Below are positions 40,966 to 64,000 of a stretch of 64,000 bases of DNA, piece after piece. A model generated the notes under the pieces. That model saw only the letters and a list, made by a program, of their open reading frames with translations. It did not search any database and was not told the DNA's origin. Within the stretch, counting starts at the first letter, position 1, and each line of letters starts with the position of its first letter. A program made the position numbers and the translations under genes. Origin of the DNA: Apostichopus japonicus (taxonomy: Eukaryota > Echinodermata > Holothuroidea > Aspidochirotida > Stichopodidae); NCBI RefSeq assembly GCF_037975245.1, contig NC_092561.1:20087508-20151507 (forward strand). The letters are read 5' to 3'.

Positions 40966-41344
40966 TCCCTTTTAAGGGGAATGGTGATGCACACCCGACA
41001 ATGATCACACAGTGACAGTCCCGATGCAAGGGGACTGGGGCTGAGAGCGGATCAGTCGTTTGGTAGGTTGGTTTTCGTGCCCACGTTCTTTCCTGGGCGA
41101 CTTTTCCTTAAAAAAAAACACACCCACCCACAAACATGTCATCATGAATGCATAGGTTACGATTATCATCAAAACCAACATCAGTATCTGTAAAAAGAGA
41201 TACATTTAAAATATTTTTTAGATTTCTTAGCGGCACAGATATTACTAGTGCCTTAATTACTGCACAATGTTTTCATGAAGTGCAGTAAATAAACAGATAA
41301 ACAGATATTATGGCAGCTGTTTACATTTTAAATCAAAGTTTTCA

Positions 41345-41383
41345 GCCTCTGAAGAAGATCCTGCTAGGATCTAAACGTCAGGC
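41345..41383 (+). ncRNA. Hammerhead-like motif, degenerate
   Basis: Stem I is GCCT (41,345-41,348) with AGGC (41,380-41,383). The core CTGAAGA (41,349-41,355) is intact. Stem II pairs GATCC with GGATC. The second core element is TAAA instead of GAAA (T at 41,372), and the palindromic ACGT for stem III precedes C at the expected cleavage site. The lost G12 should inactivate it. Confidence 0.5.
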
Positions 41384-41455
41384 CTACTTACTTTTACGCA
41401 TTCTATTACACAGGCTCTCTAGTGGATAAGCAGTTTGCTCACATTTTTATTTTTA
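41345..41455 (+). mobile_element. Penelope-like element terminal fragment (putative)
   Basis: From 41,345 through CACAGGCTCTCTAGTGGAT to about 41,455 the sequence matches, inverted, the debris at 45,880-45,988 and 51,515-51,625. Each copy starts with a hammerhead-like motif, a known feature of Penelope-like element termini. No reverse transcriptase remains, so the family is inferred from that motif. Confidence 0.45.
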
Positions 41456-41864
41456 TTTTGATCATGCAAGGAATTCACTTAAGCAAATTAGTGCAAAGAG
41501 TTCTGAGATATCTGACAAATCTATAACATACAATACGAGATATCGATGCTGATGAACAGTATTACTGACATAAATTCTCCATCACCGTATCGTTGTGTTT
41601 TGCACCTCTGATTCGGTCATACTGCCTGAATAACCATGATATGATTAATGATATTCTGTTTAAGACGAAAACCAGAAAGCAGCACAAGTAGCGTTGGCTA
41701 CAATGGTAGTTGATTATAAATGCAGGTATATCATTCTAAATTGATGTATGTTGTGAGTATTACTTTAAAAGCTGAAATTGACAAATATCTAAAAAGGAAA
41801 AAACATACTTTCATGCAAGTATAAACTGATATCATTGCTTTAAGACAATTCTGAGTTTTGCTTA

Positions 41865-42214: not shown

Positions 42215-42713
42215 CTAAAAAGGTAGAAAGGTGTTTAGTAAAATAAAAGTTGATAGTCAAAAATGTTCTATATATGCAAAGGCCTAAAAACTTCTACCAT
42301 AAAAAAAAGCTTTTTTGGCAGTGTAATTTAAACCAAAAAAGTACGCTTCACAGAAATGACAACTAAAATATCCTTACAACAATTAGTGTTATATTTTGCT
42401 GAGGAATGTTACTCGGGGTCTTACATGAACATAAGTGGCAGCTTTGTAAGTTTACAGTGATGAGATATATGATTCATTTACTGGTACACTGACATTGGAT
42501 TCCATCTGTCCACTTCATTTAATGGGAAAGTTGTAAAAGTGAGATTCTTCACAGTTTATTTGCTGTTTTAATTTTGCAGAAAGAAATCAAGTTAACTTTA
42601 AAGGGTAAAGTTGATACAGTATCTGTAGCAGAAAGTATTTTTATATATGAAACAGTTATATATTTAATTGCTTATGTCTTTGATGTATTTATATTATTAA
42701 ATTAAATACTTAC

Positions 42714-42951
42714 CTAGCTTATACAGCTTCTCTTGCAGGTCTCTGCGTTTAGCTGCTATTAAAGCCTCTCCCAGTACTCTGTATGTGGCTTGACTTCCAT
42801 TGCTCTGTTTCCAATACAACAACATTTGATAAACAGTTTCCGTGCGTCCATTGTTGGTATTATCTCTCTCAAGTGTACAGAGCTCTGAGTCATCTAGTCC
42901 AAGATTTCTACCTACATGTTTCCATTCATTTTTAATTTTCCTCGAGAGATC
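42714..42951 (-). CDS. Death domain exon, downstream cassette, CARD gene 2
   Basis: Exon of 238 bases with acceptor ATATTACAG and donor GTAAGT, entering in phase 0 and leaving in phase 1. It encodes a nearly complete death domain: EWKHVGRNLGL (helices 1-2 with the conserved Trp), CTLERDN, then TVYQMLLYWKQSNGSQATYR and VLGEALIAAKRRDL (helices 4-6, with the typical L..W and A.L pattern). Death domains form homotypic complexes in cytosolic apoptosis and NF-kB signalling. The other cassette copy (48,375-48,611) differs at 21 of the first 74 residues, although the adjacent introns are nearly the same. Confidence 0.85.
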
Positions 42952-44648
42952 CTGTAATATGATCAGAGTTTATGTATATTGAGTGTTACCTGAGTAGAAC
43001 ATACACAAACTATATCAGTTCTCTATCAGGTCCCCTTGTTGAAAGTATTTCATAATTTTTGTTAATTCGATTACAGTATGAAGTAACATTCAAATTGATG
43101 GTACTCCATTTATTGTTCATTTGAAAATTATACTATAACTGACTCCTGCTGTATATCGTATATACTGTATATTACAGCATGATACAGAATGACAGAGTTA
43201 ACATGCGGGTCATAGGTCATTAAATTCCAAGAGTGAAGTCACCCCAAGGAGTTTGTGAACACCTCCCTCCCCCCCCCCCTCCCCCATTAAGATAATAAGG
43301 TGACTTGGTTCAGGAAAATCACTGGTAATGACTAGACTCTAAAAACAATCCATGACCACACTGCAGAATGGATCATGAAAATTCCAATAGTTGTCACTAG
43401 CGAGATGTCTCTTAGATGTGATGAAAATAACATATAACGCTTTTCCCAAGTAAAAATTTGAAACTACTTAGCACTTGTGCAGGCCCAGAACGAGCAAATC
43501 GAAAACATTACGAAACAAGAATTGGTGACAAGTTGTGAGTCACCACCCAACCGAAGTGTGTAGCACACTCAACTTATTTGCAATGCATGCTGGATGATTG
43601 CAGACAAAATGAGTACTAATGGAGTGTGTACTGAATAGTTATACGTGTAGTGTGGATTTTTTTTTAAACCCTTACAACTGGTGCACATCCCCATCTGTCT
43701 CAATAAGACTTTTGTCATCTCACTTTGTGTGCTGGAGGTTAGGTTTCTATATGGAATCACCTGATTGATTAAGCAACTTGGGAAAATATGTCTTAGATAC
43801 AAGCACTAGGAGAACAGAAAAAAGATTTCAGATAACCTGACAATGCAAAGTCATTCCCTTTTGAAAGTTGACAACAGTAGTGGCATAAGTGGAAGTTGAA
43901 AATCTCTCAGTCACCTAATAGAGCAAAGGTCAAATCCTGTGACAGTTAGTGACATATAGGTATGCCAGTCGTCAAAGAAATGGTGCTCAAACTTAAACTA
44001 ATGATATGAGAGTCATTTTGTAAGCTGGTATTAATTTGATTTGGGCAATTTAAGACTTAATGACTTAATGGACCCAAGACTAGTATCTATGCACAGTGGT
44101 TGTAACTGTGTAAAGTTGTGCTTAGTACTTAATTTATTGTATTTAATCTCCAAAAGTTGACTTGTGAACCAACATTGTGCCAGTTTTATCCTTCTTGTGA
44201 ACAAGTTGCAAACATGTGTGTCAGCTGTGAACATTACAAATTGTTGGCAAGAGGCGCACATTCAGCCTTTTTTTGACACACTCTAATTTGTAAGAGCTCA
44301 TTCACAAATCATGATACGGTTTGGTAAGGGCTTGTTCGTATGCTCTGTCAAAATTGGTTATAAGTTACTGCATTCACTATTGATACATTTCAGTCGCATA
44401 AATCTAACTGCAGCAAGAACATACCTCATTAAAATCAGTTATTATAAAACAGTATCAGTATTAGGTGGCAAGCATTTTAGAAGAAATAAATCATGATGTA
44501 ACTTATACAAGCAAACCATAGAGTTTGAACCTCAAAGTTGGTATGCTTTAAGGGCCAGTATGGACAATCTGTAATTCACCAATTTGTGTTATATGGGCTA
44601 AAAAGACTGTTTCCAGGACAACAGAATCTTGTATATGTAAATTCTTAC

Positions 44649-44798
44649 CAAGAGACTTTCTTTTCTGACTTCTCGATCAATGTTTTCTAGGGGTTGTTTG
44701 ACAGCTAGACTTTGATAATAAGTCCTCTTCGGTGACTGAGATAGTCTCGCAGCTACTAATGTATCATAACTGCTAGCTGCAGAATCTTCCACTCCACC
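44649..44798 (-). CDS. Linker exon of cassette 1, CARD gene 2
   Basis: Exon of exactly 50 codons, phase 0 at both ends, with acceptor GATATTAG and donor GTAAGA. It starts GGVEDSAASSYDTLVAARLS and continues with QSPKRTYYQSLAVKQP. No domain recognised; it is a polar linker before the death domain. The copy at 50,305-50,454 is identical except for four residues, all in the last eight. Confidence 0.7.
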
Positions 44799-45411
44799 CT
44801 AATATCAGAAAATAAGAAAAATATAAATAAATATGTTAAACATCCAGCATTGTATTCAAGTCACTTGTTTCTGACTACTTTACACCAGTCAATGTTTCTC
44901 AATTCAAGTCAAGTCAAAGGTTAATTTTATTTCATCAGGTCAAGTCTATCACAAGTCATTTGACTTTCTTGCAAGTCAAATCAAGTCACAAATGAATGTT
45001 TCTAAATCCAAGTGAAGTTGAAAGTCCAATATGAAAGCAACTTATATAGTCATGCTATAGGTATAGGCATTACAATGCATCAATGGTTAAGGACAAACAA
45101 GTTACTTTTGTGAAGTGATGCAGGTGTGCGGTGGATGACATGCATCAATGAACACCAGCTGCATTGCTTGAACCAATTATATATATATTTTGAAAATTGG
45201 GGATTGTACAACCCTGGTTATATGAAACAAGTTTTTATTTCATGCCAATATGAACATTTTGATCAAGTTAATTCAACATAAGCAACTCCAACATTGTCAA
45301 TGTCACTTGTCATCAGTACTTTACAGGCTGTTTGCTAAGAATATAGTTTTACAGTCGAAATTATCAATATTTTGGAAGATATTTTGAGATGACAAATAGA
45401 CTGAACTATAC

Positions 45412-45516
45412 CATCAATGCAGCTGTAGATTCAATATAGCATCTCTTCTTTGAGTGTGGGACATCTGCTGACTGTGATGGCACAGGAATGCCTGAGAGAG
45501 ATGGTGCTGATACGTC
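45412..45516 (-). CDS. Ser/Pro-rich exon of cassette 1, CARD gene 2
   Basis: Exon of 35 codons, phase 0 at both ends, with acceptor TTAATTGCAG and a weaker donor GTATAG. It encodes DVSAPSLSGIPVPSQSADVP, then HSKKRCYIESTAALM. It is disordered-looking and has a small basic cluster (KKR). The copy at 51,049-51,153 differs by one residue. It joins in phase to the linker exon. Confidence 0.6.
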
Positions 45517-45949
45517 CTGCAATTAAATATGTTGAAATGAGGTTAGACACAGGTATTACGATATTGACTAGTAAAGAAGTAGCCATAATTGGGCTTTTAA
45601 GTGATTCTTACTTGCAAAAATTGAGAATATTTAATGTAACACTGCTGACAAGATTGGAAGTTTTGACCACTGGTGAATTCACAAGATTTCATCCTTTGAC
45701 TACTGTTGACCTCAAAAGACCTTTCACCTTTTGATTCTTGTACTTGAACAGGAACTATCATTGTAACTCCCAAAACAGTGATTACAAGGTTTTAAGATTC
45801 CAGAATGAATCCACATGCAATTCTGAAAATTATCCAAGCTTCACTGTTGGAGATGCCATGCTTAAATATTCAAAATAAAATAAAACTGTTAGCAAACTGC
45901 TTATCCACTAGAGAGCCTGTGTAATAAGAGAATGTGTAAAAGTAAGTTG

Positions 45950-45988
45950 GCCTGACATTTCGATCCTAGCAGGATCTTCTTCAAAGGC
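45950..45988 (-). ncRNA. Hammerhead-like motif, degenerate (cassette 1)
   Basis: On the minus strand: GCCT, core TTGAAGA (C3 replaced by T), stem II GATCC/GGATC, GAAA, then a short ATGT stem III, C and AGGC closing stem I. The first core base is changed, so activity is doubtful. It marks the end of Penelope-like debris next to the DIRS fragment. Confidence 0.45.
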
Positions 45989-45991
45989 TTA

Positions 45992-47979
45992 ATTGTAAGC
46001 CAGCCTTACGAGTGGACAAAGGAATAGTAGGTGATGTCCGGCCTCGTTCCTGGAGACCTGGTTGTCGTCTTGTGGGAGCTGCTGATGCTGCCTCAGTTTT
46101 CTTCTGGCCCCCTGTAGGATAGTTGGACATTTAAGCAGAGCTTTCCAAGCGTCATCGTGTACTCTGATAGCTCTGTCCGCTTTAGCTGGAGTGAAGTCTA
46201 TTTCCTTTTTGTCTGCGATTTCCTCGAACATATCGTAGCACGAGGCATTGGCATAGCGGCTCTTGGTTGGCACGCGACCTCCCCTGTCACCGTTAACTTC
46301 GAGACCTGAGTCGGTGTCTGTGGCGTTCTGGCTACTCGTCAAAACCCAACTGCTTTCAGAAGATATCAGCTGGCCTGCATTGTAAGCTCTAGGGGCAATA
46401 CTCCCCATCCCATGAGGGGATTGGAGCCCGGGGGTTCATGGGTTTCTTCCTTAAGTCCCTTAAGGTTAACGGAAGCCCTAGAATCTAGGGTATCCTCTCC
46501 AGTGACAGTTTCTTCTGGCTCTGGAGTTGATTGCAGGACCATGACCGGGCTGGCCATTATCTTCCTGCTCCCACCTTTTGCCTCTGTTCAACTCTCTGTT
46601 GTTCCAAGAGTGGTTTTAAGAGGCCTGTCAGTTGTGCCCCGTCGGAGGATTCGGAAGATTCATCTGTGGCCTGTGACCATCTCCTCCTATAACCTTGTCT
46701 CAGGAATCGTGACCAAGATCTACTGCGGTCCCATCTGGCTGGTCTGCGGGCTGTCTTTACTCCCGCTCTCAGTCCCCGCTCCGGGACCGGCTCCGATGCA
46801 GCGACCCTCCGGCCGCGGAATCTCTCTCCTGTGTCCCCGATGGGACTGGGGCTGGGCTTTCTGAGTTTCCGGTGCCTGCTGCTGCCCTACCTCCCCATCT
46901 GTGACCCGGATTGGGACGATCTCTCCAGGCCGGCCAAGCCGGACTTCTTTTTAGGCAACTCTTTCTTTGCCGTAGCCTTGCATTTTCCTTTGCCGTTTCC
47001 CTTGGCCATAACCAAACCGGACGTCGCCGGGACCGATGGAGGGACTCTCTCCACCTCTCTTTCTCTTTCTCCTTTCTCTCCTTCCGGCCTCTCTTGGCCA
47101 CTCTCCTCTACCTCTCATTCCTCCTCTTCCTTTCCCATTTGAGCTACTTCCCTCTCCACTAGGGAACTTTTGGGGTTGGGGATCAAGTCTAACTTGTCCT
47201 GTAGCTGATTCCTTTGTCCCCTTAACCAGACATCAATATCTTGCCATTGGTTGGGGGTGAACTGGATGCAAACCAGACACTAATCCTTTCTGGTGCAAGA
47301 ATGGCAATTCAGGCAAAGGTCATGTTCGTCCCAAGCCCTCCCGAGATGGAACATGGAGCCGCTAACGCATTTCAGTTGACTACATGACATGACTGAAAGA
47401 AAACTAGTTAAGGAACAACTTCTTAACGTAAATTACCAAAATGATGTGAGAAACAGGGAAGGAGAAGTAAACTAACAAAATGTAGAGATACGTAGTTGTA
47501 CCTTAACAAAGCGCCTCCCCTAGAGGCCCGCGGCTTAAAAAGGTAACAAGAAAATTACCTAATTTAACCCCACCACAAAAAGTAAAGTAAACAAGTGACG
47601 AAACTTGAAGAAAATAAACTCAAATACGAGAGAAGGCAATATGAAACAAAAATATCCGAGAGAAAAACGAATTCCTGCATATAGCCTGTGTGTGAGAAGA
47701 AGGTAGGAAAACTACTGTAGCGTAACTACGGTAAACAATTTGCGGAACTGCTACCCTGCTAGTGCTTACACATAAAAAACACGGAGCGAAAAGCGCTCCC
47801 TAAAATAGCCCCAACAAACCTCCCTAATGCAAGGAAAGGATACTTATCTGGCTGCAAGAACTTCCAAGGTCTCTCTTTACCAATAGATGGAAAAATCTAC
47901 AATCCTAGGTAACCGTAAACAGACAAATTCCGATCGGAAAATTCCACTTGAAAAATAACAATCCAGACACTTTGGATTA
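45992..47979 (-). mobile_element. DIRS-type retrotransposon, 5' part with gag-like region (cassette 1)
   Basis: On the minus strand, leader sequence (47,979 to about 47,150) is followed by frames beginning near 47,101: a basic Arg/Lys/Glu- and SR-rich region (MAKRGRKERKEKEKERW, then RSRSRSGD), then a more ordered gag-like segment including RVHDDAWKALLKCP. This matches the layout of DIRS gag. The reverse transcriptase present in the other unit (52,921-53,470) is missing here. The frames are broken in several places, so the element is inactive. Confidence 0.6.
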
Positions 47980-48374
47980 AAATTTAAACCAAAAAAGAGT
48001 ACGCTTCACAGAAATGACAACTAAAATATCCTTACAACAATTAGTCTTATATTTTGCTGCGGAATGTTAAACGGTGTCTTACATGAACATACTGTAGGTG
48101 GCAGCTCTGTAAGTTTACAGTGATGAGACATATGATTAATTTACTGGTACACTGACATTGGATTCCATCTGTCCAGTTCATTTAATAAGAAAGTTGTGAA
48201 AGTGAGATTCTAAACAGTTTATTTGCTGTTTTAATGTTGCAGAAGGAAATCAAGTTAACTTTAAATGGTAAAGTCGGTATCTGTAGCAGAAAGTAGTTTT
48301 ATGTATGAAACAGTTATATATATTTAATTGCTATGTTCCTTTGAGGTATTTATATTATTACATTAATTATTTAC

Positions 48375-48611
48375 CCAGCTTGTACAGTACTCTTGCAGGT
48401 CTCTTCGGCCAGCTGCTATAAAAGCCTCTCCTAGTACTCTGTAGGTGGCTTTACTGCCATTGATGTGTTTCCAAGTCAGCAACATCCGATAAACAGTTTC
48501 CTTGTGTCCCAGGTTGTTATTATCTCTCTCAAGTATATAAAGCACTGTGTAATTTAGTCCAAGATTTCTTCCTACATTTTTCCATTCTTTTGGAATTTTC
48601 ACGGAGAGATC
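48375..48611 (-). CDS. Death domain exon, upstream cassette, CARD gene 2
   Basis: Exon of 237 bases (79 codons), phase 0 at both ends, with acceptor ATATTACAG and donor GTAAAT. It encodes a death domain: EWKNVGRNLGL, YILERDNNN, then ETVYRMLLTWKHINGSKATY and VLGEAFIAAGRRDL. Relative to the downstream copy it has lost one base near its 3' end, which changes the last residues and lets the exon leave in phase 0. That is the phase needed to splice into the next cassette at 45,516. It could alternatively be a terminal read-through ending VNN. Confidence 0.85.
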
Positions 48612-48625
48612 CTGTAATATGATCA

Positions 48626-48630
<5 letters not shown>

Positions 48631-48681
<51 letters not shown>
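48631..48681. repeat. (AT)n microsatellite
   Basis: Expanded AT tract in the intron beside the upstream death-domain exon. The corresponding place in unit 1 (about 42,970) has only a few AT repeats. Confidence 0.95.
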
Positions 48682-48683
<2 letters not shown>

Positions 48684-50304
48684 AGTGTTACCTGAGTAGA
48701 ACATACACAAACTATATCAGTTCTCTATCAGGTCCCCTTGTTGAAAGTATTTCATAATTTTTGTTAATTCGATTACAGTATGAAGTAACATTCAAATTGA
48801 TGGTACTCCATTTATTGTTCATTTGAAAATTATACTATAACTGACTCCTGCTGTATATCGTATATACTGTATATTACAGCATGATACAGAATGACAGAGT
48901 TAACATGCGGGTCATAGGTCATTAAATTCCAAGAGTGAAGTCACCCCAAGGAGTTTGTGAACACCTCCCTCCCCCCCCTCCCCCATTAAGATAATAAGGT
49001 GACTTGGTTCAGGAAAATCACTGGTAATGACTAGACTCTAAAAACAATCCATGACCACACTGCAGAATGGATCATGAAAATTCCAATAGTTGTCACTAGC
49101 GAGATGTCTCTTAGATGTGATGAAAATAACATATAACGCTTTTCCCAAGTAAAAATTTGAAACTACTTAGCACTTGTGCAGGCCCAGAACGAGCAAATCG
49201 AAAACATTACGAAACAAGAATTGGTGACAAGTTGTGAGTCACCACCCAACCGAAGTGTGTAGCACACTCAACTTATTTGCAATGCATGCTGGATGATTGC
49301 AGACGAAATGAGTACTAATGGAGTGTGTACTGAATAGATATGCGTGTATAGTGTGGATTTTTTTTAAATCCTTACAACTGGTGCACATCCCCATCTGTCT
49401 CAATAAGACTTTTGTCATCTCACTTTGGGTGCTGGAGTATAGGTTTCTATATGGAATCACCTGATTGATTAAGCAACTTGGGAAAATATGTCTTAGATAC
49501 AAGCACTAGAAGAACAGAAAAAAGATTTCAGATAACCTGACAATGCAAAGTCATTCCCTTTTGAAAGTTGACAACAGTAGTGGCATAAGTGGAAGTTGAA
49601 AATCTCTCAGTCACTTAATAGAGCAAAGGTCAAATCCTGTGACAGTTAGTGACATATAGGTATGCCAGTCGTCAAAGAAATGGTGCTCAAAATTAAACTA
49701 ATGATATGAGAGTCATTTTGTAAGCTGGTATTAATTTGATTTGGGCAATTTAAGACTTAATGACTTAATGGACCCAAGACTAGTATCTATGCACAGTGGT
49801 TGTAACTGTGTAAAGTTGTGCTTGGTACTTAATTTATTGTATTTAATCTCCAAAAGTTGACTTGTGAACCAACATTGTGCCAGTTGTATCCTTCTTGTGA
49901 ACAAGTTGCAAACATGTGTGTCAGCTGTGAACATTACAAATTGTTGGCAAGAGGCGCACATTCAGCCTTTTTTTGACAAACTCTAATCTGTAAGAGCTCA
50001 TTTACAAAATTTGTTATAAGTTACTGCATTCACTATTGATACATTTCAGTCGCATAAATCTAACTGCAGCAAGAACATACCTCTTTAAAATCAGTTATCA
50101 TAAAACAGTATCAGTACTAGATGGCAAGCATTTTAGAAGAAATAAATCATGATGTAACTTATACAAGCAAACCATAGAGTTTGAACCTCAAAGTTGGTAT
50201 GCTTTAAGGGCCAGTATGGACAATCTGTAATTCACCAATTTGTGTTATATGGGCTAAAAAGACTGTTTCCAGGACAACAGAATCTTGTATATGTAAATTC
50301 TTAC

Positions 50305-50454
50305 CCTGAGACTTTCTGTTGTGACTACTCGATCAATGTTTTCTAGGGGTTGTTTGACAGCTAGACTTTGATAATAAGTCCTCTTCGGTGACTGAGATAG
50401 TCTCGCAGCTACTAATGTATCATAACTGCTAGCTGCAGAATCTTCCACTCCACC
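50305..50454 (-). CDS. Linker exon of cassette 2, CARD gene 2
   Basis: Same 50-codon, phase 0 exon as 44,649-44,798, with the same splice sites. The first 42 residues are identical to the other copy; the last eight read VVTTESLR instead of EVRKESLL. Confidence 0.7.
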
Positions 50455-51048
50455 CTAATATCAGAAAATAAGAAAAATATAAATAAATATGTTAAACATC
50501 CAGCATTGTATTCAAGTCACTTGTTTCTGACTACTTTACACCAGTCAATGTGTCTCAATTCAAGTCAAGTCAAAGGTTAATTTTATTTCATCAGGTCAAG
50601 TCTAACACAAGTCATTTGACTTTATTGCAAGTCAAATCAAGTCACAAATGAATGTTTCTAAATCCAAGTGAAGTTGAACGTCCAATATGGAAGCAACTTA
50701 TATAGTCATGCTATAGGTATAGGCATTACAACGCATCAATGGTTAAGGACCAACAAGTTACTTTTGTGAAGTGATGCAGGTGTGCGGTGGATGACATGCA
50801 TCAATTGAACCAATTATATATATATTTTGAAAATTGGGGATTGTACGACCCTGGTTATATGAAACAATTTTTTATTTCATGCCAATATGAACATTTTGAT
50901 AAATTTAATTCAACATAAGCAACTCCAACATTGTCAATGTCACTTGTCATCAGTACTTTACAGGCTGTTTGCTAAGAATATAATTTTACAGTCAAAATTA
51001 TCAATATTTTGGAAGATATTTTGAGATGACAAATAGACTGAACTATAC

Positions 51049-51153
51049 CATCAATGTAGCTGTAGATTCAATATAGCATCTCTTCTTTGAGTGTGGGACA
51101 TCTGCTGACTGTGATGGCACAGGAATGCCTGAGAGAGATGGTGCTGATACGTC
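51049..51153 (-). CDS. Ser/Pro-rich exon of cassette 2, CARD gene 2
   Basis: Copy of 45,412-45,516 with one residue changed (Ala to Thr near the end). It enters in phase 0, which matches the exit phase of the 38-base exon at 56,385-56,422, so it is the first cassette exon spliced after the CARD. Confidence 0.6.
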
Positions 51154-51586
51154 CTGCAATTAAATATGTTGAAATGAGGTTAGACACAGGTATTACGATA
51201 TTGACTAGTAAAGAAGTAGCCATAATTGGGCTTTTAAGTGATTCTTACTTGCAAAAATTGAGAATATTTAATGTAACACTGCTGACAAGATTGGAAGTTT
51301 TGACCACTGGTGAATTCACAAGATTTCATCCTTTGACTACTGTTGACCTCAAAAGACCTTTCACCTTTTGATTCTTGTACTTGAACAGGAACTATCATTG
51401 TAACTCCCAAAACAGTGATTACAAGGTTTTAAGATTCCAGAATGAATCCACATGCAATTCTGAAAATTATCCAAGCTTCAATGTTGGAGATGCCATGCTT
51501 AAATATTCAAAATAAAATAAAACTGTTAGCAAACTGCTTATCCACTAGAGAGCCTGTGTAATAAGAGAATGTGTAAAAGTAAGTTG

Positions 51587-51625
51587 GCCTGACATTTCGA
51601 TCCTAGCAGGATCTTCTTCAAAGGC
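51587..51625 (-). ncRNA. Hammerhead-like motif, degenerate (cassette 2)
   Basis: Duplicate of the motif at 45,950-45,988 with the same C3 change. Debris matching the same element family, including CCAACTTACTTTTACACATGC, continues to about 51,950. Confidence 0.45.
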
Positions 51626-52007
51626 TAAATGACAAGTAACAGTAACAGAAGAGACAAAAACACGAACAGAATACAGACAGGTTAATAAGCACGGTGAACA
51701 CAAAGAGATAGATGTAAGGGGATTAGTAAACAAGGGATGGAGAGAAGAAAGAAAGAAACCACCAGGGGTTTATTATAGCTCTCTTCCACCCTTTTTTTCT
51801 CCACACTTTTCTGTCTTTGTCCTTCTCCAGTTTATTCCCTACCCCCTTCCCTAATCATCTCTTTGCCACTCCACTGTTTATCTCCTACCTCTCCTCTTCC
51901 ACTGGTGGTTTCTTCCTCTCTTCTCTCCAACTTACTTTTACACATGCTTAAATATTGTTATACTTTGACAATGGCGACCTTTCAAATCTATAGCAATACA
52001 CAGAAAA

Positions 52008-52008
<1 letters not shown>

Positions 52009-52045
<37 letters not shown>
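52009..52045. repeat. (AT)n microsatellite
   Basis: AT tract followed by a second copy of sequence from the cassette intron (CTATAGGTATAGGCATTACA, also at 50,712), so part of the intron was copied with the repeat. A further short AT tract is at 52,185-52,208. Confidence 0.9.
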
Positions 52046-52049
<4 letters not shown>

Positions 52050-52327
52050 CTATAGGTATAGGCATTACAACGCATCAATGGTTAAGGACCAACAAGTTAC
52101 TTTTGTGAAGAGACACGGGAGTGTGTGGTGGATGACATGCATCAATGACCACCAGCGGCATTGCTTGAACCAATTATATTCCATAAAAATATATATATAT
52201 ATATATAGGAATAACGGAAAAACTGTTAAACAACTATGCTGCATTTAGAGAAAGGATGGATCTCGAGTGAGATACAATAATTGAATTAGGTAAGTGATTG
52301 GAAGTAAAACAGCCAATGTTTGGTTTT

Positions 52328-52366
52328 TGCAGAGCTTTCGAGCAAAACTAGCTCTTCTTCAGTGCA
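52328..52366 (-). ncRNA. Hammerhead ribozyme-like motif with GAAA core
   Basis: On the minus strand: TGCA, core CTGAAGA, stem II GAGC/GCTC with a seven-base loop, GAAA, stem III from the palindrome AGCT, C at the cleavage position, then TGCA closing stem I. Both core strands match the consensus CTGANGA and GAAA. Stem III is too short to fold alone, as reported for hammerheads of Penelope-like elements, which act as dimers. Confidence 0.55.
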
Positions 52367-52386
52367 TGATCACCGAAAGTGACCAG

Positions 52387-52420
52387 TATAATTCGTGAAG
52401 TGGAATTTTTTTTTCTAAAT

Positions 52421-52466
<46 letters not shown>

Positions 52467-52499
52467 ATTTAGAAAAAAAATTCCACTTCACGAATTATA
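52387..52499. repeat. Long AT-centred palindrome
   Basis: TATAATTCGTGAAGTGGAA and the following T run are mirrored at 52,466-52,499 around an AT tract, a near-perfect hairpin of about 113 bases. GTGAAGTGGA also follows the hammerhead at 52,743, so the arms are probably two copies of the same element end joined head to head. Confidence 0.8.
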
Positions 52500-52644
52500 T
52501 GCAAGCCAAGAGTGGTTATTCTGAGTAAAATTGTCAGATTCAAAGCGCCAGGGGTGCACTCTGTACAATCATAACACTTGGGTAATACACCCTTAATGAC
52601 AGTTATTCAAAGCCAATTTATACGCTTCAACACACCAGTAGAAT

Positions 52645-52706
52645 CACTGTGGTCGAGTAGTACGGACTTCGGTTCCTGACACGAAGATCCGGGGTCCGAT
52701 TCCTAC
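52645..52706 (+). mobile_element. tRNA-like promoter segment before a hammerhead
   Basis: TGGTCGAGTAG (52,650-52,660) fits a pol III A box and GGTCCGATTCC (52,693-52,703) a B box at tRNA-like spacing. It is tRNA-derived rather than a functional tRNA, since anticodon and acceptor stems are not convincing. The hammerhead at 52,707 follows with no gap. Confidence 0.55.
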
Positions 52707-52748
52707 CTTCACCTGATGAGTCCCAAAAGGAAGAAACCGGTCGTGAAG
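52707..52748 (+). ncRNA. Hammerhead ribozyme motif
   Basis: All parts are present: stem I CTTCAC (52,707-52,712) pairs with GTGAAG (52,743-52,748); core CTGATGA (52,713-52,719); stem II GTCC/GGA(A) with a CAAAA loop and one mismatch; GAAA (52,733-52,736); stem III from the palindrome ACCGGT; and C at the cleavage site 52,742. The loop-less three-pair stem III implies action as a dimer or multimer. Self-cleaving hammerheads of this kind occur in retrozymes and Penelope-like elements. Confidence 0.75.
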
Positions 52749-52834
52749 TGGATTTTTTCTGGTGTGTTATTCTTTATTGATTTACTATTTATCTGTCATA
52801 CCACTTGCTACACATTCAATATATATATGTACAG

Positions 52835-52837
<3 letters not shown>

Positions 52838-52890
<53 letters not shown>
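52838..52890. repeat. (AT)n microsatellite
   Basis: Pure AT repeat between the hammerhead unit and the DIRS pol fragment. Open frames through it are artefacts. Confidence 0.95.
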
Positions 52891-52894
<4 letters not shown>

Positions 52895-52920
52895 TATACT
52901 ACAGTACTTTGTGAAATCTA

Positions 52921-53470
52921 TTACAGCCTCCAGGAACTGGATTGTGTCGTGGACAGCTGTGACTTTTCCTTGTTGATTATCCAACCCAGTTCCTGGAGAG
53001 TCTGTACTGTCTTGTGGACATTGTTTTCTGCGTCAGATTCTGACTCCCCTACCATGAGCCAATCGTTGAGGCTGAAAACTGTGAGACCTCTTTTTCTAAG
53101 GTAGGAGACTACCGTTCCCGTTATTCTTGTGAATCCTCTGGGGTGTGGCATATAGTCTGAACGGGTGAGCTTTGTATCTGAAATCCTTTCCGGCTTATTC
53201 GAAGGCTAGGTACCGTTGATGGCCTCGGTGCATGGGCATGTGTAAGTAGACGCCTTTGATGTCTATGCTCGCTGCCCACATGCCCTTTCTGAGAAAGGGT
53301 ATAACTAAATTTAGCGTTGAAATGTTTTGGCTTTAATAAGTTTTTGTTTAGGGGTTTTAGATTAAGGATGGGACACCAAGATCCGTCCTGTTTTTTTGTT
53401 AGAAAGAAATAGGACCGGAAGCGGGGTCCCACCTCCCGAAACCTCTACAACTGCCTGCCTGCTTGGCCAG
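52921..53470 (-). pseudogene. DIRS-type reverse transcriptase fragment
   Basis: Minus-strand frames read FLTKKQDGSWCPILNLKPLN (the RT fingers motif KKDG.WRP.L.L..LN), then after a frameshift MWAASIDIKGVYLHMP (the SIDIKDAY..VPI motif), then PRGFTRITGTVVSYLRKRGL and FSLNDWLMVGES, and ELGWIINKEKSQL. The order is that of DIRS/Ngaro-type RT. The catalytic YLDDW box has become SLNDW, losing one catalytic Asp, and at least two frameshifts are present, so it is dead. RNase H, methyltransferase and tyrosine recombinase domains are not seen. Confidence 0.8.
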
Positions 53471-53659
53471 CAGGCCTGAAATTTCCCCTTCTAGGGCAGC
53501 TCTTTGAACGGGTCCGTGGTTGTTGAGGTTATTCTTCCTCCATCCCCAGAAGGCAGACTAGAGGTAAATTCTATTTGATACCTTATGAAATCGTCTCCAA
53601 CACCCATTTGTCCCTGCCCATGATCACCCATTTCTGGGTTAAGTATGTTAATCTCCCCG

Positions 53660-55340
53660 GGGGTTCATGGGTTTCTTCCTTAAGTCCCTTAAGGTTAACG
53701 GAAGCCCTAGAATCTAGGGTATCCTCTCCAGTGACAGTTTCTTCTGGCTCTGGAGTTGATTGCAGGACCATGACCGGGCTGGCCATTATCTTCCTGCTCC
53801 CACCTTTTGCCTCTGTTCAACTCTCTGTTGTTCCAAGAGTGGTTTTAAGAGGCCTGTCAGTTGTGCCCCGTCGGAGGATTCGGAAGATTCATCTGTGGCC
53901 TGTGACCATCTCCTCCTATAACCTTGTCTCAGGAATCGTGACCAAGATCTACTGCGGTCCCATCTGGCTGGTCTGCGGGCTGTCTTTACTCCCGCTCTCA
54001 GTCCCCGCTCCGGGACCGGCTCCGATGCAGCGACCCTCCGGCCGCGGAATCTCTCTCCTGTGTCCCCGATGGGACTGGGGCTGGGCTTTCTGAGTTTCCG
54101 GTGCCTGCTGCTGCCCTACCTCCCCATCTGTGACCCGGATTGGGACGATCTCTCCAGGCCGGCCAAGCCGGACTTCTTTTTAGGCAACTCTTTCTTTGCC
54201 GTAGCCTTGCATTTTCCTTTGCCGTTTCCCTTGGCCATAACCAAACCGGACGTCGCCGGGACCGATGGAGTGACTCTCTCCACCTCTCTTTCTCTTTCTC
54301 CTTTCTCTCCTTCCGGCCTCTCTTGGCCACTCTCCTCTACCTCTCATTCCTCCTCTTCCATTCCCATTTGAGCTACTTCCCTCTCCACTAGGGAACCTTT
54401 GGGGTTGGGGATCAAGTCTAACTTGTCCTGTAGCTGATTCCTTTGTCCCCTTAACCAGACATCAATATCTTGCCATTGGTTGGGGGTGAACTGGATGCAA
54501 ACCAGACACTAATCCTTTCTGGTGCAAGAATGGCAATTCAGGCAAAGGTCATGTTCGTCCCAAGCCCTCCCGAGATGGAACATGGAGCCGCTAACGCATT
54601 TCAGTTGACTACATGACATGACTGAAAGAAAACTAATTAAGGAACAACTTCTTAACGTAAATTACCAAAATGATGTGAGAAACAGGGAAGGAGAAGTAAA
54701 CTAACAAAATGTAGAGATACGTAGTTGTACCTTAACAAAGCGCCTCCCCTAGAGGCCCGCGGCTTAAAAAGGTAACAAGAAAATTACCTAATTTAACCCC
54801 ACCACAAAAAGTAAAGTAAACAAGTGACGAAACTTGAAGAAAATAAACTCAAATACGAGAGAAGGCAATATGAAACAAAAATATCCGAGAGAAAAACGAA
54901 TTCCTGCATATAGCCTGTGTGTGAGAAGAAGGCAGGAAAACTAGCGTAACTACGGTAAACAATTTGCGGAACTGCTACCCTGCTAGTGCTTACACATAAA
55001 AAACAAGGAGAGAAAAGCGCTCCCTAAAATAGCCCCAACAAACCTCCCTAATGCAAGGAAAGGATACTTATCTGGCTGCAAGAACTTCCAAGGTCTCTCT
55101 TTACCAATAGATGGAAAAATCTACAAACCTAGGTAACCGTAAACAGACAAATTCCGATCGGAAAATTCCACTTGAAAAATAACAATCCAGACACTTTGGA
55201 TGGTGGAATGAGAAGGAAGGGCGGTGACCGGTGGAGCCAGTCATAGAGGGCGCACATTGTTAAAAGGCTACCGGGACATTCCAGACACTGTAGAATGTGG
55301 ACGCTATGGTTGTGGGGAGACAGGTAAGTGAGGAACAAAG
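53660..55340 (-). mobile_element. DIRS-type retrotransposon, 5' part (cassette 2)
   Basis: Nearly identical to 46,430-47,979, including the basic SR-rich gag start at 54,330. It extends about 140 bases further 5' (55,200-55,340) than the copy in unit 1. Gag sequence equivalent to 45,992-46,430 is missing, and a jump near 53,655 joins gag directly to the RT region at 53,520. Confidence 0.6.
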
Positions 55341-56384
55341 TAAATCATGTATTTACTAAAACAGATCCACATTCCATGTACAAGAGTCACACAAACTTTA
55401 TTACTAAAGTTTCCCATAATTTGATTCCTATCAATTTGTACAGAGGGTCAAGTTTATATGAGTTCACATAGGTCAATTCATATAACAGGACTTATCAATT
55501 TAAACTTGAAAAAACATGTGCTTACAAGGATTTAAGATTCCAGAAGGAGAAAACCTTAAATTATGAAATTTAATCCAAGCTTCACTTTTGGAATTGCCAT
55601 GTATATATATTTGTATACTTTGTCAAATCACCTCCTAACCTACTGTACTGTATAGCCACACAAAGAATTCCTAAAATATAACCACAGCGAAAGCCCTCTC
55701 AGTGGTTACTTGCCGTCAAATACATTACGTATGCAGCACAAGAGTACAGTAGTTTGCATGCTAACCCTGGCTGAAGTTCATACTGAATGTACAGTACCTG
55801 TACCTAAAGCTAACGTTTGAGCTCCACCTAAAACAGCAAGGAGGTTCTACTGCATATGAGGTATTCAAATCAGCATAACGTTCACATCTTCATGGATGGG
55901 TGTTTGAAAATCTTAATCCAATAGCCCGAAGGATGTTTGTACTAGCCCCAATTCTTCAAACTAACGTTAGGCTATGGCTTCCACATATACTATGCACACA
56001 AGTAACCTGCTATGAATGTTAATAGGCAATTGAAACCTCAGTACAGTGACATACAAAGAAGACACCTAATATACAAGCAAACAACTCCTCAATAGTGACC
56101 CTCTATGACCATTGACCTCCACCAAAAACGATAGGCTTCTTATTCTCAATGTGGTACTTGTACGCATTAAATATGAAGTTGGTCTGACCTTGCCATCTTG
56201 AGATATCGTGTCTACAAGCTGGGCGTCACAACGCACTCACACACACACACACATATGCCATTATGAATGAAAAGGTCCCGATTATCATCGAAACCTTATT
56301 GACAAGAGTTATGTGTACGCTTTCGAGAGTATACCAACAGTAAGTTAATGGTTACACATTCGTTAAGTTTGAAGGTTGATTTAC

Positions 56385-56422
56385 CTGTAATGCGACTTGT
56401 TTGTCATAGCGATGGATTGGTC
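56385..56422 (-). CDS. 38-base linker exon of CARD gene 2
   Basis: Acceptor CAATCTTACAG and donor GTAAAT, entering in phase 1 and leaving in phase 0, encoding GPIHRYDKQVALQ with the shared codon. Same length and phase as 5,069-5,106. It joins the CARD exon to the first cassette exon at 51,153. Confidence 0.7.
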
Positions 56423-58421
56423 CTGTAAGATTGAGAACAAAAACATGTGTCATCATCATTACTATCATTACAAACACTGGAGTACAGATTAAAAGCCCCC
56501 CCCCCCCCTTAATATACAGATCTTTCGGGTTACGTTATTCACATGTTAGTTGCAGTTTAAAGAAATTTCCAATAATATCCAAAAGCAAATGTTGCATTAC
56601 AAGCAAGAACGTATGTAATCTCAGAGGAGGGTTCCTTGCTAGGGGTTTAAATCAGTTGAATATGAAGTATAGAGATTCTTAGAATATATTATTCTTAGAA
56701 TATATGTGGGACAGAATACAAATGTTCGTGGGAATACGCATTATTTACCTTCTTGGCTCCACACAGCTCCTTTGGTTGAGGGTTGGACACCCCGCACAGT
56801 CTCTAAACAAAGTTAACTTTCACTTATTATTCAGTGCTCGCAATTACTACTCGAGTATGCGACACCTCATTGTTTCGAAAAATGTTTATTTTCACCTTTG
56901 CGTGGCAGGTTAAAAGCTCTATGAGGTAAATATGTATTTCAGTTGCATTACTTCTAAGATTGATTATCTCGACGGCAATTACCCTGTATTTTCATAGTTG
57001 TTTTTAGGCCTCGAAACAGAGAGTTCTCTAGGAGCAGAGGCTAGGCTAGTAGATTGTGGTTATAGCAGTGCTCAGGTTACGTTCGCTGTTCCAACGACGG
57101 AACAAGTTACTGTATAGGAACTTATTTTACTGCTACTACTGCATGTAACATTTGTAACATAGATTTGATGTTTACTAAGTAATTAATGGGTATCGCGGAT
57201 GGCAGGGGACCCTCTGGGATATTTATTGTTTGTATATGTTCACATGTTAAAGTTATATTCAGACTGGCAAGCTGGTAAGCTTTGGAGCCTATCGGGTTAA
57301 ATTACACTTAGGCTGTATGTGTTAGCGACTGTAGAGGTGTTCGCTAATAGCGCCCTCGGATAGTCCTCACCAAAGCATTGTATTAAAATGGCCGCGCCCA
57401 TGTGTCGTTAAACGTAATTGTTGCACACATAACAGTGTAGGTGTTGGTACCGACTTGTATCCCACTGGACATTAGTTAATTGTTTCAGTAATGTATAGGA
57501 TGAGTTGAATTAAACCAACTGTTTATTTAATTCTTGAGTTGCCATTTATATTTAGGGAAAATCCCCATATGTTTGGTATTACAGTTGGAAGCAGAGATAA
57601 GGGTTATATGAAAGTGAGACCCCCCCCAGTGGTGTTCCATTTTATACAAGGGGTAAACTTCACATGCATTGTTTGTATTTTTCAGTTATCCTTTTGTCCA
57701 AGGAACATCACTTACATATGTCTAAGATTAAGTGTTATTGTTCTGCGGCCCGGTCATTTTTAGCTCACTTAGCCAACTTAAAGGAGTTTTCCAATTTTAT
57801 TCTATTAAATAAAAGGAGTATTACCTATGATTAAAGGTGAGGCTATACTGCTTCTTATTCCTTAAGAAACTATTCTAGTGGTTTTCTTATTTTCTTCTTT
57901 CACATTTCGAGCTCGCTAGAGAGGAGCGATTAATATACTGCTTACTACAATACCAATCGTTTGACTCAGTCATTTGTGTCACCCCATCTCCCCCCATGGG
58001 CGTCACCACACCGACAACCTCACCACTCCCGCCCGGCTTTACATGTACGTTGTACAGTATTAGTTGTATGGCCATTACATAACACTTGCACAACCTCTAA
58101 TGTGTGACACATTAACCCGAGAGTATGCATCATTTGAGCATCACACCAAAACACATTAACAACGTTTGGTCTGTGTCACTTTAGTTATTGTATGCATGTT
58201 TTTTATACAGGAAATGGGTCACAGCCGCAGTTTTTGAATTATATAAAGTCTACCTTATTCACCATGGTATATAGTTAAACCTTAACTTGTTCAAAAAACT
58301 CAGGGCCAGTCAGTCAGTGTACAGTATCGATTCAAATTCAATTAATATGTTATGAATTTATTGTACTTGCTAGGTTTTTATGTTGAATTTTAACTGTTGA
58401 CCTTAAAAGTTGTTGAAAATC

Positions 58422-58529
58422 ATGGTGTCCTTTATTAATGCAGTAGCCCAATCACTGGTAGGTTCCTTACATCTTACAGATCCAAATCGGGAATGGATTT
58501 ACTGCCTTGAACTTCTTCAAACTTATAAG
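58422..58529 (+). CDS. Putative plus-strand exon in the CARD gene 2 intron, unknown
   Basis: An ATG opens 36 codons (MVSFINAVAQSLVGSLHLTD, then REWIYCLELLQTYK) running straight into a good donor GTATGT. It is strongly conserved in the copy at 5,785-5,892, where a TAA breaks it. I do not recognise the peptide and find no matching downstream exon. It may be the first exon of another gene carried in the duplication, or a chance frame preserved by recent duplication. Confidence 0.3.
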
Positions 58530-58696
58530 GTATGTTTCAATCATATTGATTTATCACAATGAGCACAATGCTTCTAATATCATTAGGAATGTTGCCAAAC
58601 CACATTTACTTGTTTATTAAAAATAAATCACTGAACCTGAAAATGCAGTTAACAGATTAATGCAGCCTATGCAGGTGTTTGCATCACTATACTAAC

Positions 58697-58862
58697 CTTT
58701 GTCATCTTTGCTGAGCTTTTCCACCAGATCAGACATGCCCGGGATTTTGTCTAGAGCTTTTACCAGCTTCACATACCCATCATGAAGTCCCATCACAACT
58801 TTAAGAAGTTGTCGATTGGCTCTAACACTTCCTTTGTTGTCTAGCTCGCATTGTATTTGTTC
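58697..58862 (-). CDS. CARD C-terminal half exon, CARD gene 2
   Basis: Same 166-base exon, splice sites and phases as 6,058-6,223. It reads ANRQLLKVVMGLHDGYVKLV and KALDKIPGMSDLVEKL. It differs from gene 1 at 18 of 55 residues, clustered in the polar turn and helix surfaces, while LL, GYVKLVKAL and LVEKL are kept. The matching N-half exon should lie just beyond the right edge of the window. Confidence 0.8.
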
Positions 58863-59780
58863 CTATGGATGTAACAATCCAGAAATATTCGAAACAATCA
58901 TTTAATGATTGTAAGAAAACTTTATGGTGACATTTTATAGATGATTGATTTTGTCTACATTTTACCAAGATTTGCTGGATTTTCACAACTGGTATCAAAC
59001 ATAAACTTCAAATGAACATTTCTCATGATGGATGGTTAGATTAAATTCACCTCACTTATTCATTTAGCTTAGTAACACAATATTTAAATGTATAATATAT
59101 ATAAATATATATATTTATATATACTGTATATTTATTTATATTTATTTGTTTTCATTGAATATTGGAATATATAAGTCAATCTTCTTTTAAGAGGACCTTA
59201 ATATTGCAGCTGGTCGATCCAACGAACTAAACTTTTATTTCCAACGCAATAATGACTAAGAAAATTCTTGATGAAAAAGGATAGAGCTATCACTTAGGTC
59301 ATCAGAAAGGAAAGTCTGACACCCTTAAAGTATAGAAACATTTTATGTCTATAAACGTAACGCTCATGTGCAGGAACTTTATCGGATAAGGAGTGCTCTG
59401 AATAGTGTGAAGCTCTGAAGATGTGAAGCTTCATATCGAACACATGAGTCGGTGAAGCCTATATTTTCGTATAAAGTAGGGTTCTTACATGCATCACGAA
59501 AGAACATTATCTACCCAGGACATTATAAAACTTTGAAATTGGAAAAAGGGTGCGAATATCTTGCGCACCGGTCTGTGATTTTGTACTGATTTTATACTTA
59601 TGGGCTATGTGGCTATATTAGGTTATTTTAAGGCTAGCCAGCGCGAGAAACACCTGGGGTGGGGATTGCTGTTATATGAAATAGGGGGGGGGGATGAAAT
59701 CCTATCAATACTAACTGTTACTTATTAACTGTCCTCACAGGTGTTCGAAATCGAAAATGTTACCAGCACTAAAATATTAG

Positions 59781-62451: not shown

Positions 62452-64000
<1,549 letters not shown>

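What the first reader, a model, noticed from the sequence alone, without database searches (positions are those of the whole stretch)
42714..48611. Death-domain exons differ far more than their introns
The two death-domain copies differ at 21 of the first 74 residues, and by eye at about one base in six. The introns beside them are nearly identical on one side and only slightly diverged on the other. The Ser/Pro exon has one change in 35 residues, and the linker's four changes all lie in its last eight residues, nearest the death exon. Coding DNA evolving faster than intron suggests diversifying selection, or gene conversion that replaced only this exon.
Basis: seen in the sequence. Interest (0 to 1): 0.8.

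Follow-up and report, generated by a model that had tools for sequence, protein, structure and literature searches.

The report
Swapped death-domain exons in tandem units
Two neighbouring gene copies with almost the same introns carry clearly different death-domain exons, most likely because the exon region was exchanged between copies of a large immune-type gene family whose death domains also show signs of selection for change.

Summary
In detail: 21 of 74 residues and 37 of 222 bases differ between the two death exons, beside an intron stretch with 0 of 612 differences. The genome fits the sea cucumber Apostichopus japonicus by assembly size. The exons belong to a family with relatives mainly on C12, where they lie downstream of NACHT exons, as in NLR-like genes. 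Unit 2's exon plus about 200 bp of 3' flank groups with a mostly C12 clade, while its 5' intron and outer 3' flank are of the local type. Unit 1's exon is identical to that of a third local unit 38 kb away. So the contrast comes mainly from patchwork exchange (gene conversion). Selection is not shown by the pair (dN/dS 0.5-0.8) but is supported across 30 family exons: about 15% of codons at omega near 2.5; 0 of 61 null simulations were as extreme. No NACHT exon of the subfamily was listed beside the local cluster (best candidates only), and its exon tips average omega 1.00. Whether the local units work is open.

The parts
42325..45993 (-). Unit 1: Ser/Pro exon, linker exon, death exon (likely the last exon)
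   Evidence: blastn of the window against itself
47981..51630 (-). Unit 2, same order of exons
   Evidence: 93.6% over 3724 columns
42730..42951 (-). Death exon of unit 1, codons 1-74; open frame runs on to 42697
   Evidence: identical in 222 of 222 bases to locus L009 (C1:20168603)
48390..48611 (-). Death exon of unit 2, codons 1-74; one base shorter than unit 1 just after
   Evidence: nearest exon among those compared L041 on C12, 18/222 differences
48180..48631 (-). Exchanged tract in unit 2 (edges approximate): death exon plus about 200 bp of 3' flank, of the mostly C12 'B' clade
   Evidence: Informative sites local:B = 50:0 in 5' intron, 3:23 in exon, 5:15 in 3' flank 1-210, 76:4 in 3' flank 211-418; trees
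42986..43600 (-). Intron stretch identical between the units (0 of 612)
   Evidence: its first 205 bases are identical in unit 1, unit 2 and L009
48632..48681 (.). (AT)n run about 20 bp upstream of the unit 2 death exon, at the edge of the exchanged tract
   Evidence: 51-nt run in unit 2, 0-6 nt in the other 46 members scanned
44649..44798 (-). Linker exon of unit 1 (phase 0 at both ends)
50305..50454 (-). Linker exon of unit 2
45412..45516 (-). Ser/Pro exon of unit 1
51049..51153 (-). Ser/Pro exon of unit 2
46427..47977 (.). Repeat between the units, 99.2% identical to 53656-55201; unit 2 begins 4 bp after it

Best explanation
Shown by sequence: the two units are a tandem pair in a cluster of five such units on C1 (20.13-20.28 Mb), part of a larger death-domain family. 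Unit 1, unit 2, L009, L010 and L011 have similar introns, but their death exons fall into four clearly different sequences (unit 1 and L009 share one). Unit 2's exon plus about 200 bp of 3' flank is of a mostly C12 type; unit 1's exon equals that of a local unit 38 kb away. Inferred: short gene-conversion tracts between family members (ectopic exchange) moved or preserved terminal exons independently of the introns, while other tracts homogenised the introns. On C12 these look like last exons of NLR-like genes (NACHT ... linker ... C-terminal death domain), and selection for amino-acid change acts on part of the domain, plausibly on the surfaces by which death domains assemble. The exon's excess over its own 3' flank is partly this selection and partly older exon ancestry. 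Direction of each exchange is not known.
For: Exon tree: unit 2 inside a 13-row clade whose other rows are C12 (11) and C16 (1) exons (98/99); 4 local rows as one clade rejected, AU P = 0.0066. 3' flank (215 bp): unit 2 again with such rows (12-row clade, 94/93), local clade rejected, AU P = 0.0002; 5' intron (180 bp): all five local rows together (88/86), and unit 2 with the B clade rejected there, P = 0.0015. Site scan 50:0, 3:23, 5:15, 76:4 (exon+3' 1-210 against the rest, Fisher 4e-26). Synonymous informative sites in the unit 2 exon: 6 B-like, 0 local, so not convergence alone. Three-way: in 42325-42984, 67 sites have unit 1 = L009 and 5 have unit 1 = unit 2; beyond 43190, 125 have unit 1 = unit 2, 19 unit 1 = L009, 20 unit 2 = L009 (sums). 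NACHT: 37 of 37 close NACHT exons typed (C12 27.6-34.1 Mb) have one or two death exons 11-56 kb downstream on the same strand. Site models: M1a/M2a P = 3.4e-4, M7/M8 1.4e-5, M8a/M8 7e-5; own M0 likelihood equals IQ-TREE's (-2065.36 and -2065.39); 0 of 31 and 0 of 30 null simulations reach the real statistic.
Against: A clade of unit 1, L009 and unit 2 is not rejected by the exon alone (AU P = 0.224), nor one of unit 1, L009 and L010 (P = 0.084); only 4 and 5 exon sites are shared privately by unit 2 and L010 with their proposed donor clades (0 with unit 1/L009). Unit 1-unit 2 dN/dS is below 1 and the four local exon tips average omega 1.00, as drift would give. Without three long rows M1a/M2a is only P = 0.049; without the local rows the selected class shrinks to about 3% of codons. 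The exon shows internal patchwork (log-likelihood about 125-130 units better with separate trees for its halves), so a single exon tree is a simplification. One C12 pair (L030-L040) also has synonymous change above its flanks (P = 0.0069). Only 62 of the 150 listed death exons were looked at, so closer donors may be missed. Transcripts were not seen: exon limits rest on splice consensus and open frames.
Confidence: 0.75

Rival explanations
1. Diversifying selection alone: the exon simply changes faster than its introns after an ordinary tandem duplication.
For: Family-wide site models. Nonsynonymous change exceeds flank change in 6 of 6 local pairs at P < 0.05 (pairs are not independent; L009 left out, its exon equals unit 1's), with synonymous change not clearly raised in unit 1-L010 (P = 0.21).
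Against: For this pair synonymous sites are raised too (9.7/48 against 23/339, P = 0.004); about 200 bp of noncoding 3' flank shares the foreign history.
Confidence: 0.1
2. The C1 cluster is a set of partial, non-working copies: NACHT-less cassettes drifting neutrally, with conversion as a by-product. (Compatible with the best explanation of the pattern.)
For: No NACHT exon of the subfamily is listed near C1:20.13-20.28 Mb (123 of 466 candidates scored); local tips have omega 1.00; unit 2 is one base shorter at the end of the domain.
Against: 5 of 5 local units keep 74 codons open and ungapped. About 95 inferred changes on four tips (branch lengths) times 0.049-0.063 stop chance would give about 5 stops by my arithmetic, and none is seen; but recent conversion from working donors could also keep them open.
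Confidence: 0.4
3. Flanks were homogenised and the exons merely kept their old, distinct lineages, through selection against conversion, rather than a foreign exon being inserted. (A variant of the best explanation.)
For: Sequence patterns would be the same; the 0/612 tract between unit 1 and unit 2 stops next to the exon.
Against: Needs several lineages to have been present in the local cluster before homogenisation; L010 groups within a 10-row clade of otherwise C12 exons (96/89), though a clade with unit 1/L009 is not rejected (P = 0.084).
Confidence: 0.35
4. Assembly artefact (two haplotypes placed in tandem).
For: Divergence of 0-2% over most of the unit would suit haplotypes.
Against: Further units at 38 kb and beyond with their own mosaics; a separate repeat lies between the units; the genome fits a HiFi and Hi-C assembly. 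Reads were not seen.
Confidence: 0.05

Closest known systems
Zebrafish NLR-B30.2 family (PMC4852459; abstract and passages read)
   Same: Large NACHT gene family in which gene conversion acts differently on different domain exons, and the C-terminal domain shows positive selection.
   Different: There the domain is B30.2, proposed to recognise pathogens; here it is a death domain, a signalling module. Here one tract of about 430 bp is mapped between sequence types of different chromosomes, and a cluster without detected NACHT exons takes part.
Echinoderm NLRs with death domains (PMC8913654, PMC11508797; passages read)
   Same: NACHT proteins with death domains in echinoderms.
   Different: The passages seen describe N-terminal death domains; here the death exon lies 11-56 kb downstream of NACHT and its frame soon ends in a stop.
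A. japonicus Ig-NACHT receptors AjNLRC4 and AjNLR-new (PMC8699970, PMC13133943; passages read)
   Same: NACHT proteins in the species that this genome fits.
   Different: Described as Ig + NACHT; no C-terminal death domain in the passages seen. Not tested whether they are the same genes.
RIPK1 death domain (PDB 9kv7)
   Same: Best solved relative by sequence (8.9e-7); domain at the C terminus (position of RIPK1's domain recalled).
   Different: No kinase match in the minus-strand stretches scanned.
Primate L/M opsin genes (PMC3213168; search listing with start of abstract only)
   Same: Tandem pair whose introns are homogenised while some exon differences persist (recalled).
   Different: Single pair under selection against conversion (recalled); here several exon types and more than one chromosome.

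Membership tests
Death domain (PF00531) | Profile match over the curated cut-off | tested here: met
   55.2 and 39.5 bits against 22.6
Death domain (PF00531) | Bundle of about six helices | tested here: inconclusive
   Five helices in a two-sequence AlphaFold2 model, mean pLDDT 67.4; fold search did not complete
NLR / NACHT protein family (C12 relatives) | NACHT exon in the same gene | tested here: inconclusive
   37 of 37 close NACHT exons followed by death exons on the same strand; 27 of 34 listed family exons have a NACHT exon within 60 kb upstream; joined transcripts not seen
NLR / NACHT protein family (the two window units) | NACHT exon | tested here: not met
   No Pfam NACHT in 51601-63992 minus; none of the subfamily listed near C1:20.13-20.28 Mb (best candidates only, and parts of the cluster not fetched)
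NLR (LRR-bearing) | Leucine-rich repeats | not tested
   No search of the genome for LRRs was made; none appears in the Pfam scans
RIPK1 | N-terminal kinase | tested here: not met
   No kinase hit in the stretches scanned; parts of the local cluster were not fetched
Gene conversion tract | Foreign ancestry bounded on both sides by local ancestry | tested here: met
   Unit 2: 50:0, then 3:23 and 5:15, then 76:4
Gene conversion tract | Non-reciprocal transfer | not testable with these tools
   One assembly, no outgroup species
Positively selected domain | Codons with omega above 1 | tested here: met
   (family level); not met for this pair alone or for the local tips as a whole

The most novel reading that the evidence does not exclude
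The C1 cluster is a genomic bank of death-domain exons that exchanges terminal exons with NACHT genes on another chromosome, so that signalling specificity, not only recognition, is diversified by cassette swapping; the free death-domain units could act as adaptors or decoys for the NACHT proteins that share their exon type.
Probability: 0.15. Interest if true: 0.8.

Novelty: new variant of a known kind. Interest (0 to 1): 0.55.

Why it matters
Death domains are usually regarded as conserved wiring. A family in which the signalling end of NACHT proteins is swapped between copies and chromosomes, and changes under selection, would suggest an arms race or an insulation problem at the signalling step, and gives a natural set of variants in which to test which death-domain surfaces set pairing specificity.

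Tried and rejected
Pair-only diversifying selection: dN/dS below 1 by four methods. Exon-only conversion in unit 2: the 3' flank shares the foreign history. For L010 an exon-only tract looked clear by site counts (5' 53:4, exon 4:22, 3' flank 53:6), but two of three reference rows sufficed to define a local site, so in the exon unit 1 and its twin L009 could define it alone, and only 2 synonymous sites support it; a clade with unit 1/L009 is not rejected (P = 0.084), so I give it as suggestive. 'PF19033' and 'Lambda_ea8_5' hits on the minus strand are below their cut-offs. Kinase, NACHT or other N-terminal domains near the units: none in the scanned stretches (the last found only a weak reverse transcriptase in L010). 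Full-length flank alignments across the family inflate distances where flanks are not homologous, so the trees use only the nearest 215 and 180 bp.

Rows dropped: L057 and L060 (shorter by a codon), L064 (long branch; kept in site models, out of the trees), exons with other acceptor sequences, and distant death exons; identical rows entered once in the site models (34 to 30). Of 150 listed death exons 62 were looked at, by my count of the loci.
Full report
WHAT IS THERE. The window lies at C1:20087508-20151507 of a 671.58 Mb genome in 35 contigs. Size and scaffold number fit the published Apostichopus japonicus assembly of 671.60 Mb and 34 scaffolds (PMC10344927, abstract and passages read); the species is thus inferred, not read from a record. 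Two tandem units on the minus strand (42325-45993 and 47981-51630) each hold a Ser/Pro exon, a linker exon and a death exon, all starting in phase 0 (my reading of the frames). A repeat of about 1.55 kb with a 99.2% twin at 53656-55201 lies between them. The death frame soon ends in a stop: many relatives stop right after EKLY, unit 1 after ...GKYLI. It is therefore most likely the last exon, although unit 1 also has a donor-like GTAAGT there.

Death exons differ at 21 of 74 residues and 37 of 222 bases, evenly over codon positions 11, 13, 13. Mismatch by region: 3' flank 7.75%, exon 16.9%, 2 of 34 beside the exon, next intron 0 of 612, then 5.5% over 200 bp, then 0.4-3.3%. dN/dS is 0.76 (NG86), 0.73 (LWL85), 0.52 (YN00) and 0.56 (ML), ratios of the printed dN and dS; bootstrap 0.36-1.95. 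Synonymous and nonsynonymous sites are both above the flank (P = 0.004 and 0.0025). That calls for older ancestry of the exon, not only for selection.

RELATIVES. A Pfam Death search of the genome lists 150 exons (a lower bound), 79 of them on C12 by my count. I looked at 62 of these places. 34 have the same acceptor (TTACAG) and 74 ungapped codons, 30 of them distinct in sequence, none of the 30 with a stop; blastn finds flank similarity to unit 1 around these. Five lie in a local cluster: unit 1, unit 2, L009 (C1:20168603), L010 (C1:20238207), L011 (C1:20273260). A DNA search with unit 1 finds the same five there, plus two short pieces.

MOSAIC. L009's death exon is identical to unit 1's in 222 of 222 bases. 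In 42325-42984, unit 1 matches L009 against unit 2 at 67 sites and unit 2 against L009 at 5; 42985-43189 is identical in all three (205 bases); from 43190 on the sums are 125 for unit 1 = unit 2, 19 for unit 1 = L009 and 20 for unit 2 = L009, with two bins at 45000-45411 that do not follow the rule. So unit 1 changes partners just 5' of the death exon. Unit 2's exon has its nearest relatives, among those compared, on C12 (L041 18/222, L039 19/222, against 37/222 to unit 1). Trees of 33 rows: in the exon, unit 2 sits in a 13-row clade otherwise from C12 (11) and C16 (1) (98/99), and the four local rows as one clade are rejected (AU P = 0.0066). In the 3' flank unit 2 again sits with such rows (94/93; local clade rejected, AU P = 0.0002), while in the 5' intron the five local rows group together (88/86), and unit 2 with the B clade is rejected (P = 0.0015). 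Counting sites that separate the local type from the B clade, unit 2 reads local 50:0 in the 5' intron, B 23:3 in the exon, B 15:5 in 3' flank 1-210 and local 76:4 beyond; with L028 and L046 alone as reference the 3' flank 71-140 reads local 7:4. Six of six synonymous sites in the exon are B-like. This is a tract of about 430 bp with foreign ancestry and local sequence on both sides. A 51-nt (AT)n run, seen in unit 2 and not in the 46 other members scanned, marks its 5' edge. Results against: with the exon alone, unit 1 + L009 + unit 2 as a clade is not rejected (P = 0.224). For L010 the evidence for an exon-sized tract is weaker.

SELECTION. I wrote a small codon-model program; its one-ratio likelihood (-2065.36) agrees with IQ-TREE (-2065.39). 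Over 30 exons: omega 0.82 overall; M1a/M2a P = 3.4e-4, M7/M8 1.4e-5, M8a/M8 7e-5, with about 15% of codons at omega about 2.5. Eight sites have a simple (not Bayes-corrected) posterior above 0.9 under M8: 12, 22, 25, 34, 45, 46, 50, 65; unit 1 and unit 2 differ at six of them. In a modest model (pLDDT 67.4) these lie in the first four of five helices and one loop. That such faces make contacts between death domains is recalled, not tested. Re-runs, M1a/M2a and M7/M8: separate trees for the two halves 0.012 and 7.4e-4; without three long rows 0.049 and 0.0033; without the local rows and L064 9.1e-4 and 4.4e-4, with only about 3% of codons in the class. Null simulations: 0 of 31 with one tree and 0 of 30 with two trees joined reach the real value of 19.82 on the same kind of tree (largest 10.06). 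The run stopped by time before all 50 of each. The four local exon tips have omega 1.00, not different from the rest (P = 0.33). Pair comparison: in 6 of 6 local pairs (L009 left out) nonsynonymous change exceeds the flank at P < 0.05, while in 0 of the 8 C12-C12 pairs printed does it; two further C12 pairs that I asked for (L028-L046, L043-L062) gave no row because one member was missing from the flank alignment, and one C12 pair (L030-L040) has raised synonymous change (P = 0.0069).

WHAT GENES. On C12, 37 of 37 NACHT exons at 85-90% identity to the query and 27.6-34.1 Mb are followed on the same strand by one (25) or two (12) death exons, 11-56 kb on (from; three NACHT exons in the range at 35-36% were not included). 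[quoted passage not shown] joined transcripts were not seen. One such pair exists on C1 at 18.70-18.72 Mb, with NACHT at 18704779 and the death exon at 18719681. Near the local cluster no NACHT of the subfamily is listed (123 of 466 candidates scored) and none is in the scanned window parts. The local units are thus NACHT-less as far as seen; 20151508-20164000 and other gaps could not be fetched.

HOW IT LIKELY WORKS. Inferred: repeated short conversion tracts between copies make exon and intron ancestry independent, and selection on death-domain residues favours keeping or importing different exons. What remains unexplained is why exon change exceeds intron change so strongly in the local cluster: selection, an unsampled donor, or relaxed constraint in NACHT-less copies all remain possible.

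COMPARISON. The closest precedent is zebrafish NLR-B30.2, where conversion acts differently on domains and the C-terminal domain is positively selected (PMC4852459, abstract and passages). Searches of the paper library for death domain with gene conversion and positive selection (5 papers, none opened), for sea cucumber NLR (5 papers, PMC8913654 and PMC8195603 opened for passages) and for C-terminal death domain, NACHT, echinoderm (107 papers, 10 listed; PMC8195603, PMC13133943, PMC8699970 and PMC8913654 opened for passages) showed nothing describing this case. The passages of PMC8195603 report expansions of TRADD-N domains in echinoderms and other marine animals, a different domain. This is a limited look, not proof of novelty.

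Noticed in passing
C12:27.6-34.1 Mb of the same genome (outside the window): A regular array of NACHT exons each followed by one or two death exons; 12 of the 37 used have two, in the cases sequenced of different subtypes.
   Followed up: partly
L030 503-607 and 2477-2587: Two Ser/Pro exons in one unit, a tandem exon duplicate.
   Followed up: no
window 46427-47977 and 53656-55201: Two 99.2% identical repeat copies; a reverse-transcriptase-like frame lies beside the second at 53121-53444 minus (judged by eye, no family hit). Unit 2 starts right at the end of the first copy.
   Followed up: no
window 45870-45992 and 51507-51629, inverted at 41341-41461: A short repeat ends both units and occurs inverted just downstream; it could have seeded the duplication.
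   Followed up: no
window 12670-15230: Tandem array with repeats about 400 bp apart, 73-93% alike.
   Followed up: no
window 48632-48681: (AT)n run at the edge of the exchanged tract, in unit 2 and not in 46 other members scanned.
   Followed up: partly
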